Below, piece by piece: positions 1 to 6,208 of a stretch of 35,836 bases of DNA; position 1 is the first letter of the stretch, and every line of letters starts with the position of its first letter. Both the position numbers and the translations under genes were made by a program. The notes beneath the pieces were generated by a model. It ran no database searches, was not told the DNA's origin, and was given only the letters and a program-made list of their open reading frames with translations. This DNA is from Verrucomicrobiota bacterium (GTDB taxonomy: Bacteria; Verrucomicrobiota; Verrucomicrobiia; Opitutales; JAKPNF01), in contig JAKPNF010000041.1 of NCBI GenBank assembly GCA_029548565.1, positions 1 through 35,836 on the forward strand, read 5' to 3'.

Positions 1-143
1 CCTGCTTGGCCCGACGAAAACGCAGCCACGGGCGCTTTGGGCTCGCGGGAACGGAAGATTTCGGAGAAATCTTTCGTGTGTACACGACAGCTCACACATA
101 CAGCGCACCACATCAGAAATCCGGGGCGCCCAGCTAACTTCAT

Positions 144-1271: not shown

Positions 1272-1450
1272 AGTCCTTTTAGACTGAAGCAACGCTCGCG
1301 GCGCTTCAATCTTTTTTGAGGGAATAAAGAGTGCGTGCGCCTACGGCGCTGAGTGATTTTTTAGGGGGCTGGCGCAGGTCGTGGCGGCATTGGGGTGACG
1401 AACCCTAGTTTTGACTACCCGAAAGAATATCCCGTTGGGCTATTCTTCCG

Positions 1451-1574
1451 TTCCCGCGGTGAAAATGCTTCAGGGCGGATTTTGCCTGGTCTTACGATGG
1501 GAACAAGTAGTCTCGTACGTGCCCCCATCTATCCTGCGGCAAAATCCGCCCTGAAGCATTTTCACTTGCGGGAA
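1451..1574. repeat. Long inverted repeat (28-bp perfect arms)
   Basis: The arms 1459-1486 and 1538-1565 are perfectly complementary over 28 bases (left arm begins GTGAAAATGC, right arm ends GCATTTTCAC). After a one-base asymmetry the pairing resumes for seven more bases (TTCCCGC at 1451-1457 with GCGGGAA at 1568-1574). The 51-base centre contains a smaller dyad, GATGGG (1496-1501) with CCCATC (1524-1529), around the palindrome CGTACG at 1514-1519. There is no T-tract, so it is not a standard terminator. It could be a MITE-like remnant or a structured RNA or DNA site. No second copy was seen in this window. Confidence 0.85.
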
Positions 1575-1688
1575 AGCTGCACGGAGCAAAGATGGCCAGT
1601 GTGCAGTATTTTTTTAGAAGGAGCTGGCGGGTTGCTTTAGATTATTTTGGAAGGTAAGATTTCGGTGTGCTCCAGCTCCGTAAGGGGG

Positions 1689-1710
1689 TGCAGGGGGCTA
1701 GCCCCCTGCA
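1689..1710. repeat. 22-bp perfect palindrome
   Basis: The sequence TGCAGGGGGCTAGCCCCCTGCA is written here in two parts for clarity: TGCAGGGGGCT (1689-1699) followed by its exact complement AGCCCCCTGCA (1700-1710). It lies about 90 bases past the stop codon of the minus-strand GH-like gene. There is no following T-tract. It may slow transcription or be a dispersed repeat; the function is open. Confidence 0.7.
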
Positions 1711-1799
1711 GGTGCTAAGCATTACCGGGTGCATGGCTGAATAACAAAACGAATGCCTGTTATTTTTCGCCGCCTCCGCCAGCCCACACAGGTGCTATT

Positions 1800-3446
1800 T
1801 CACTTTATCGAAAGATCGACGAACATAATGCGGATGGCGCCGCCTTCTTTTAGTTCCAGTGAGATTTTGTTTTCTCCTTCTTTGAGCAACGAGTGCGGGA
1901 TTTCCCATGCGCGCAGGGTTTCTTCCGTTCCCAATAAATGTGGATACGGAGTTTTGAAGGGCTCGGCGATGTTGGCGATGGGGGTCAGATTTTCGCCGTT
2001 GAAGCGTGCGGTGATGACGCTGCCGGGTGTTATTGGCTGGGCGCTTTGGATACGCAAGCGGGCGCTGGATTTAAAGCCCTCTTTGGGTGGATACAACTGG
2101 AAGGTCAATGCCACGGGTTGCTTTGCGCGCAGGGTTTTGGGCAATTGCACGGAATTGCCATAGGGCGAGCGCCACACGGGAGAGAGGAAATAAAATTGCG
2201 GGGAGTTTGCCACCGCGTTTTTGTCGGCTATTTTTTGGATGACGTGAAAGGGCGGCTCTGAAAAAGGGCCGCGTTCGGGCTTGTGGCCGTATTCGCGGTA
2301 GTAAGCGAAGTTGAACAGGCTCACGCCGTCCAGACGATTGGCGTAGGCGATGTGCGCGGTCGTGTAAAATTGCTCGTCGGTCGTGCGCCGGTAAAAATTG
2401 CTGTCGCCCGTTTTGCGGCCGGGATCGGCGCCGACCACGGTCACGTGCGTCATTTCCAGGTACATCGCCGCGTTGGGCGCCTCGGCGCGGTTGCGTGCCA
2501 GTTCCATGCCGTCTTGCACGGTGTAGTAGTTGGCCGAAAGGTTGATCATATCCACCCCTGCCCGCTCGAGCGCGGCCAGATCAAGCCCTAGGGCGTCTTG
2601 CGCCGCTTTGACCGCGGGCACGCGTACGCTCAGATGGCGACGCTTGCCGTCCTTTTGCGATTTGTCCAAAAGCGAGCGCACCTCTTTCATGAACGCGGTC
2701 ACGATCTCCCGCCGTTGTTCAAGCGTGGTCGTATTAGGATTGAACAGGCGGAAGTGGCGCAAAAAATCCAACTCCAGCCCGTCGATTTCGTACGCGCATA
2801 CCTCGGCGATAAACCCGAGCACCCGCGCGCGCACCTGCGGGTGTGCCCAGTCCATCACTTGGCTTTCGCGCACGGCGAAAGTGTTTTTGGGGTCGATTTG
2901 GCCGCCCGAAAAATTGCCAAGCCTCCATTGCGGATACTCGCGGCGGAAGCGGTCGATGGCCAAGGCGCTGTGCACGTGCAAGCGCGCCCCGGGCGCCGCG
3001 TCCAGATCTTCCACCGCGTGATAATCGTTCATCCGCAGCGAGACAAACGCCGCGACTTTTTTGTCTTTGCAATGATCCAGATAGAGCTGCAAATAGTCCC
3101 CGCCCTGCATCATGTAGGTCGCAAAGCCCGTGCGCGGCGTGCGTGGGAAATTTTTATAAAACCATTCAAAATGCTCCTTCGGCGGGTAAATTTTGCTGTC
3201 CCACAAGGGCACGTACAGCAGCCCCATCGACAGCAGATACGCATCCGCCCCAGCGTCAATGGCCTCGTCGATGGAGGCCTTCAGCACCTGCGGCTCAAAG
3301 GGCGCGCCGCTTTGCGGGTGAAACGGCGCCACGCAGGATTCGAGATTTGTCGTGTCGTTATTATAAAGCACCTTAAACGGCGCCTTTGCCGCCGACGCCG
3401 CGCACAGGCTCGCTGCAAAAATCATGGCTGCCGCGCGAAAATTCAT
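1800..3446 (-). CDS. Secreted TIM-barrel glycoside hydrolase-like protein
   Basis: The 548-residue product opens with a signal peptide (MNFRAAAMIFAASLCAASAA), so it is exported. The middle has features of TIM-barrel hydrolases of the GHL10/DUF187-like kind: DAYLLSMGLLYVPLW, a probable strand-end acid stretch EIDGLELDFLRHF around residues 220-235, and a following helix EIVTAFMKEVRSLL. The C-terminal 130 residues or so look like a beta-sandwich ending. The acidic pair in GLELDFLRHF sits where such families carry a catalytic or sugar-binding acid, but this is by analogy. The ATG at 3446 has AGGGTGG a short way upstream. It is divergent from the DUF481 gene. The substrate is probably a plant or host glycan, which is inference only. 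Confidence 0.6.
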   Translation of the reverse strand: MNFRAAAMIFAASLCAASAAKAPFKVLYNNDTTNLESCVAPFHPQSGAPFEPQVLKASIDEAIDAGADAYLLSMGLLYVPLWDSKIYPPKEHFEWFYKNFPRTPRTGFATYMMQGGDYLQLYLDHCKDKKVAAFVSLRMNDYHAVEDLDAAPGARLHVHSALAIDRFRREYPQWRLGNFSGGQIDPKNTFAVRESQVMDWAHPQVRARVLGFIAEVCAYEIDGLELDFLRHFRLFNPNTTTLEQRREIVTAFMKEVRSLLDKSQKDGKRRHLSVRVPAVKAAQDALGLDLAALERAGVDMINLSANYYTVQDGMELARNRAEAPNAAMYLEMTHVTVVGADPGRKTGDSNFYRRTTDEQFYTTAHIAYANRLDGVSLFNFAYYREYGHKPERGPFSEPPFHVIQKIADKNAVANSPQFYFLSPVWRSPYGNSVQLPKTLRAKQPVALTFQLYPPKEGFKSSARLRIQSAQPITPGSVITARFNGENLTPIANIAEPFKTPYPHLLGTEETLRAWEIPHSLLKEGENKISLELKEGGAIRIMFVDLSIK

Positions 3447-6123: not shown

Positions 6124-6206
6124 GCCCGGATGGCGGAATGGTAGACGCTGCGGACTTAAAATCCGTTGGCCGCAAGGCCGTGGGGGTTCAAGTCCCCCTC
6201 CGGGCA
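6124..6206 (+). tRNA. tRNA-Leu (anticodon UAA)
   Basis: The acceptor stem pairs GCCCGGA (6124-6130) with TCCGGGC (6199-6205), and A6206 is the discriminator. The anticodon loop is CTTAAAA with TAA at 6157-6159, giving UAA for leucine UUA/UUG codons. The gene has a long class II variable arm, GGCC-GCAA-GGCC, and a normal T arm GGGGG-TTCAAGT-CCCCC. CCA is not encoded (ACCCG follows). From 6154 onward its 3' part is repeated at 7332-7386 beyond an AT-rich islet. Confidence 0.96.
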
Positions 6207-6208
6207 CC
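6154..6208 (+). repeat. Left direct repeat (tRNA-Leu 3' part, attL-like)
   Basis: This segment is the 3' part of the intact tRNA-Leu gene, from the anticodon loop to two bases past the discriminator. It matches 7332-7386 at 51 of 55 positions. All four differences lie in the variable-arm stem. Confidence 0.85.

What the first reader, a model, noticed from the sequence alone, without database searches (positions are those of the whole stretch)
1451..1574. Perfect 28-bp inverted repeat with structured centre
The arms are identical over 28 bases and extend by seven more after a bulge; the 51-base centre has its own dyad and a CGTACG palindrome. Perfect arms of this length in a stretch without genes point to recent mobility or strong selection. 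There is no T-tract.
Basis: seen in the sequence. Interest (0 to 1): 0.5.

Follow-up and report, generated by a model that had tools for sequence, protein, structure and literature searches.

The report
Dispersed nested-hairpin repeat between genes
The perfect inverted repeat is the central hairpin of a non-coding repeat about 490 bases long that has spread to dozens of places between genes in this bacterium, and a folded relative with the same hairpin tip turns up in one distantly related genome, which suggests a little-studied kind of mobile or structured repeat.

Summary
In detail: arms 1459-1486/1538-1565 match 28/28 and the strand folds far better than shuffles (z -10). It is not single-copy. 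It is the central hairpin of a modular, gene-free repeat (window about 1317-1805) found at 40 places in its own 2.14 Mb genome, plus 8 places of a second sequence type with the same fold. Between copies the stems change on both sides: 18 of 57 pairs, at most 3 when partners are slid. The perfect arms are special to this copy: in 15 of the 17 aligned copies of its type one arm pair is A.C, so perfection does not itself mark recent arrival. Copies sit mostly between convergent genes (17 of 33; background 17 of 129), usually starting right after a stop codon. A relative with nearly the same hairpin tip occurs at several places in one other genome of the order, not in its 13 genus-mates searched. 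Best reading: non-autonomous mobile repeats of the BOX/BIME/MITE kind, hairpins kept by structure and by template-switch repair. No mobilising enzyme was found; the REP transposase family is absent.

The parts
1317..1805 (+). whole repeat element (one copy of the dispersed family, type I)
   Evidence: extent shared with at least 2 of 31 other copies; flanks beyond it are not shared
1331..1362 (+). 5' module: GC-rich hairpin followed by T6; the module also occurs at places outside the list
   Evidence: by eye; for dispersal
1366..1378 (+). outer inverted-repeat arm (pairs with 1773-1785, 92%)
1420..1450 (+). side hairpin S1, with compensated changes between type I and type II
   Evidence: helix 1: 5 of 10 pairs with change on both sides
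1451..1457 (+). outer 7-bp extension of the long stem, 5' side
1459..1486 (+). 28-base arm, 5' side
1496..1529 (+). apical hairpin with conserved tip motif; four pairing variants among copies
   Evidence: helix 3
1538..1565 (+). 28-base arm, 3' side
1568..1574 (+). outer 7-bp extension of the long stem, 3' side
1577..1615 (+). small stem (1577-1583/1601-1607) followed by T7
   Evidence: not listed by the terminator scan
1622..1805 (+). 3' module with hairpins (for example 1689-1710 palindrome); found at other places without the core
1773..1785 (+). outer inverted-repeat arm, 3' side
1..130 (-). type II relative of the same element, cut off by the contig end, on the other side of the ORF 144-1292

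Best explanation
The inverted repeat is the central hairpin of a non-coding, modular, interspersed repeat of about 490 bp. Shown: many dispersed copies in different flanks, no gene inside, a shared fold kept through compensated changes, a strong leaning to convergent gene ends, and a relative with the same hairpin tip in one other genome of the order. Inferred: the copies are non-autonomous and were moved or copied by an enzyme acting in trans that knows the folded hairpin, most likely its tip; insertions survive mainly in the short spacers after stop codons; between moves, replication template switching within the hairpin homogenises the arms, which is why this copy is perfect while most sister copies keep one mismatch.
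For: 40 places in the own genome with different flanks. Two sequence types with one architecture; on 21 copies 18 of 57 pairs change on both sides, 0 of 500 shuffles reach that and slid pairings give 1-3. Tip variants pair as GTA/TAC, GCA/TGC, GTG/CAC next to CA/TG, GC/GC, GCC/GGC. 17 of 33 copies between convergent ORFs, 1 divergent, against 17 and 19 of 129 in the background (orientation). In 13 of the 14 copies with a well-scored head-on gene the element begins within roughly 20 nt of the stop codon. Relative in G091, at 6 places, starting at stop codons; pattern found in G000 and G091 with the conserved tip out of 372 genomes of the order, reversed control 0. Arm repair: columns 63-132 and 52-143; mechanism known from template-switch papers (PMC7202029, PMC8794818: abstracts in listing).
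Against: No target-site duplication and only a 6-base similarity of the two ends seen by eye. No REP-type transposase in G000 or in G091 and three relatives; other transposase families were not searched. No copy with an enzyme gene was seen. No strain-level empty site in this genome's own lineage. Double-sided changes can arise from template switching without selection. 'Further pair types' did not exceed shuffles (157 of 500).
Confidence: 0.7

Rival explanations
1. A multi-copy structured RNA or 3'-end RNA element (terminator, mRNA stabiliser or regulator) kept by selection at gene ends; dispersal is secondary.
For: Stems kept by compensated changes; copies start at stop codons and avoid divergent promoters. 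Non-standard pairs are uneven by strand: in 17 type I copies A.C or C.A 34 cells against 2 G.T/T.G, so the minus strand as RNA would have G.U there. By my count this is 8 pair positions against 2, not tested for significance.
Against: No Rfam family at gathering score in the window apart from a tRNA, and only weak sub-threshold matches elsewhere. No promoter- or terminator-like site by the scans. Several copies have lost the whole hairpin. Patchy occurrence: 2 of 372 genomes of the order with the tip motif in multiple true copies.
Confidence: 0.2
2. A BIME/REP array moved by a REP-associated tyrosine transposase.
For: Mosaic of palindromes in non-divergent spacers, as REPs (PMC3733652 passages, which also say Opitutus terrae, a verrucomicrobium, is rich in GTAG REPs).
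Against: PF01797 absent from G000 (97% complete) and G091, while the control genomes ring; the unit is about 490 bp, not 20-40 bp.
Confidence: 0.04
3. Integron-like attC recombination sites behind cassette genes.
For: Hairpin whose fold is conserved better than its sequence, placed directly after stop codons.
Against: Half of the copies lie between convergent genes and on many contigs, unlike same-direction cassette arrays; the apex, not the base, is the most conserved part. attC features are recalled; no integrase search was run.
Confidence: 0.02

Closest known systems
Pneumococcal BOX/RUP/SPRITE repeats (PMC3049150, passages read)
   Same: modular, variable in size (BOX 67-637 bp), highly folded if transcribed, over-represented between convergent genes, inserted into one another
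   Different: host group; no shared sequence family was tested; BOX and RUP have inverted ends and target duplications, not shown here; here a second, sequence-divergent type keeps the same fold
REP / BIME palindromes (PMC3733652, passages read)
   Same: palindromic, intergenic, mosaic, mainly between convergent or same-direction genes
   Different: units of 20-40 bp with GTAG or CGTC end and often a RAYT gene; here a 490-bp unit, no RAYT found
MITEs (PMC10969869, search listing only)
   Same: short, gene-free, folded, dispersed
   Different: no clear long terminal inverted repeat or target duplication here
Quasipalindrome correction by template switching (PMC7202029, PMC8794818, abstracts in listing only)
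   Same: explains arm homogenisation copy by copy
   Different: a mutation process, not an element

Membership tests
REP/BIME with RAYT | RAYT (Y1 transposase, PF01797) in the genome | tested here: not met
   0 of 1 and 0 of 5 genomes; controls positive in 5 of 14
REP/BIME with RAYT | unit of 20-40 bp with GTAG or CGTC at one end | tested here: not met
   unit about 490 bp; no such fixed end in the alignment (by eye). Four of five G091 junctions have GTAG at the stop codon, noted only
MITE | no coding gene, under about 600 bp, dispersed copies with unrelated flanks | tested here: met
MITE | target-site duplication | tested here: not met
   12 copies, 3.08 against 3.08 in permutations
MITE | terminal inverted repeats shared with a transposon in the same genome | not tested
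   only a 6-base AAATAG/CTATTT likeness by eye; no transposon search beyond PF01797
BOX-like modular repeat | modules that occur in different combinations | tested here: met
   5' and 3' modules and an 80-bp module occur apart from the core
BOX-like modular repeat | sequence homology to BOX | not tested
   no BOX model was compared
Rfam structured RNA families | match at gathering score | tested here: not met
Integron attC site | same-direction cassette array with an integrase | tested here: inconclusive
   half the copies in convergent spacers on many contigs; no integrase search
Intrinsic terminator | GC-rich stem directly followed by a T-run | tested here: inconclusive
   scan lists none; two stems with T6/T7 seen by eye

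The most novel reading that the evidence does not exclude
A new class of structure-recognised mobile repeats: the folded hairpin tip (GGGRGCAGYA..TRCAGCCCC), not the sequence ends, is the tag read by an unknown mobilising protein. It is carried between distant members of the order and reinserted at stop codons, and further modules (the 80-bp repeat) enter specifically at hairpin tips, so that hairpins grow like nested dolls.
Probability: 0.2. Interest if true: 0.75.

Novelty: new variant of a known kind. Interest (0 to 1): 0.45.

Why it matters
Short folded repeats make up much of the spacer DNA of some bacteria, yet for most it is unknown what moves them and whether the fold is read as DNA or RNA. 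Here one genome supplies two sequence-divergent types with one fold, an apical tip shared with a distant genome, copies with the hairpin lost, and modules nested at hairpin tips. That makes both questions testable, and shows that a perfect hairpin need not be young: arm repair can make it perfect in place.

Tried and rejected
Single-copy relic of a transposon: rejected by the 40 places. Perfect arms as a sign of youth: rejected from the column counts. REP/RAYT: PF01797 absent. Known RNA family: nothing at gathering score except the tRNA. Phage or plasmid origin: no phage match and only two 27-base plasmid matches. Pattern of the arm in 84,980 species genomes and in viral contigs: 0 and 0, own genome possibly left out there. 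The tip pattern in viral contigs gave 30 contigs; none holds the rest of the structure (best E 0.64), so I take them as chance. The two other genomes of the order with a pattern match, G117 and G071, gave no R1 match.

Weak or failed tests: the first helix test for the 80-bp module at hairpin tips gave 7 of 24 places with 9 or more gapless pairs against 0.35% of random places; the folding version is less clear because random GC-rich flanks also pair (17 of 24 with 15 or more cross pairs against 538 of 2000; null energies). In one search my label for the two 3' modules was faulty (it calls L006 and L010 'A' against the alignment), so I do not use it. Model R1 was scored on only 12 candidates per genome, and alignment A2 is off by one base in the apical stem of the type II rows, which lowers, not raises, the pairing counts there. 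The background sample (15 stretches, 143 kb) left out most contigs already known to hold copies; it serves gene orientation only, together with the window. Rows dropped from A2: L005, L013, L022, L031, L047 (of the 26 found).

Full report
Observation. Arms 1459-1486 and 1538-1565 are complementary over 28 of 28 bases with 51 between; seven more pairs follow after a small bulge; folded as RNA the stretch is 10 standard deviations better than shuffles. It lies between two minus-strand ORFs, 144-1292 (lactonase/SMP-30-like) and 1800-3446 (weak glycosyl hydrolase 18).

It is one copy of a dispersed repeat. With window 1380-1640 as query the own genome (G000, 2.14 Mb, 170 contigs) shows matches that I group into 40 places by hand; later calls brought nine more (C9:400 and C24:1; the others). 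Eleven of the 40 stop within 60 bases of a contig end, so some may be halves of one copy. Comparing 32 copies with their surroundings, the shared stretch runs from about window 1317 to 1805 and the flanks beyond are unrelated. No ORF of note is shared. The repeat is modular: the 3' module (window 1640-1810) also occurs without the core, the 5' module occurs at further places, and an 80-bp repeat sits in the hairpin loop of several copies and at many other places.

Two types, one fold. Reading upstream of orphan 3' modules revealed a second core (type II, 8 places including the cut-off piece at window 1-130) that differs in most stem letters but keeps the order: side hairpin, TTCCCGC/GCGGGAA stem, long arms, apical GGGG..CCCC hairpin. 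On an alignment of 17 type I and 4 type II copies, 18 of 57 pairs show a change on both sides and 92.4% of cells pair; 0 of 500 shuffles reach the first three measures, and slid partners give 1-3 such pairs. 'Further pair types' is not above shuffles (157 of 500). Within type I alone the apical stem exists as several compensated variants.

Why this copy is perfect. In 15 of 17 type I rows the pair of A2 columns 63-132 is A.C; the window copy changed the 5' arm (G-C) and L010 changed the 3' arm (A-T). At columns 52-143 the forms C-G, G-G, G-C and T-A coexist. Such repair of one arm from the other is what template switching in quasipalindromes does (PMC7202029, PMC8794818; abstracts seen in the listing). 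So double-sided changes need not all be selected, and perfect arms are not a clock. Other copies have lost the hairpin (L036, L037, L039, L040, L042, L055, L057, L060 among those read), by eye between short direct repeats.

Where copies sit. With a codon-usage gene caller trained on the window, 36 places were examined (30 type I, 6 type II); both neighbours were called in 33: 17 convergent, 15 same direction, 1 divergent. In 179 kb of background the counts are 17, 93 and 19 of 129 (Fisher P 8.8e-6 for convergent). In 14 copies with a well-scored gene running towards the element, a landmark about 16 bases inside the element lies 9-34 bases after the stop codon in 13 and 74 in one, where a normal-looking terminator stands in between. 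Short convergent spacers, in which an insertion does least harm, explain much of this.

A relative elsewhere. Model R1 searched in 223 genomes of the order hit G000 and, at 27.7 bits (E 0.002), G091 of another family. That weak hit proved real: in G091 the stretch is repeated at six places, starts at stop codons and carries the tip GGGAGCAGTACTTCAGTACAGCCCCC, nearly that of G000. Three genus-mates have the same gene without the element; their reading frames end one or a few codons away from where the G091 frame meets the element (I take the gene for pyruvate:ferredoxin oxidoreductase by eye). The tip pattern occurs in 4 of 372 genomes of the order: 11 times in G000, 6 in G091, and in G117 and G071 without the rest of the structure; the reversed pattern occurs in none. 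Of the 14 genomes of G091's genus in that list only G091 has it. In 387 genomes of the phylum only G000 matches (one reversed control match). The pattern covers only some tip variants, so absence means absence of those.

How it works. Shown: dispersal, modularity, a kept fold, placement, patchy occurrence. Inferred: transposition or copying in trans, recognition of the folded tip, arm repair. The mobilising enzyme is unknown; PF01797 is absent from G000 and G091 and no other enzyme family was searched. Whether the fold acts as single-stranded DNA or RNA is open. In type I non-standard cells are A.C/C.A 34 times and G.T/T.G twice, which would be G.U on the minus strand; 8 positions against 2 by my count.

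Comparison. It behaves like pneumococcal BOX repeats, which are modular, folded, enriched between convergent genes and inserted into each other (PMC3049150, passages), and like REP/BIME mosaics (PMC3733652, passages), but fails the RAYT and size tests of the latter and the target-duplication test of MITEs. I found no earlier description in four searches; most subscription papers are not in that library. I file it as a new variant of modular interspersed palindromic repeats.

Noticed in passing
window 1-130 (minus): A type II relative of the element, cut by the contig end, directly after the stop codon of ORF 144-1292, so that this gene has an element on each side.
   Followed up: yes
L034:1608-1690 and 23 other places: An 80-bp structured repeat with compensated inner hairpins that often sits exactly at the tip of other hairpins: the loop of type I and type II cores and the loop of terminator-like palindromes.
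   Followed up: partly
L047, L049, L050, L052, L053, L056: The 3' module follows type I cores, type II cores, or stands alone.
   Followed up: partly
L022 and L031: Two type I copies carry a different side hairpin in place of S1.
   Followed up: no
L036, L037, L039, L040, L042, L055, L057, L060: Copies that have lost most of the long hairpin, by eye between short direct repeats.
   Followed up: partly
contig ends of G000, for example L020, L021, L023, L024, L026: Many contigs end inside the element; the repeat breaks the assembly, so the copy number is uncertain.
   Followed up: no
L121 1537-1541 and sister copies L125, L127, L128: In G091 four of five junctions read GTAG at the stop codon just before the element, as in GTAG REPs, although no RAYT gene was found.
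   Followed up: partly
window 6124-6208: tRNA-Leu (TAA), ordinary.
   Followed up: no
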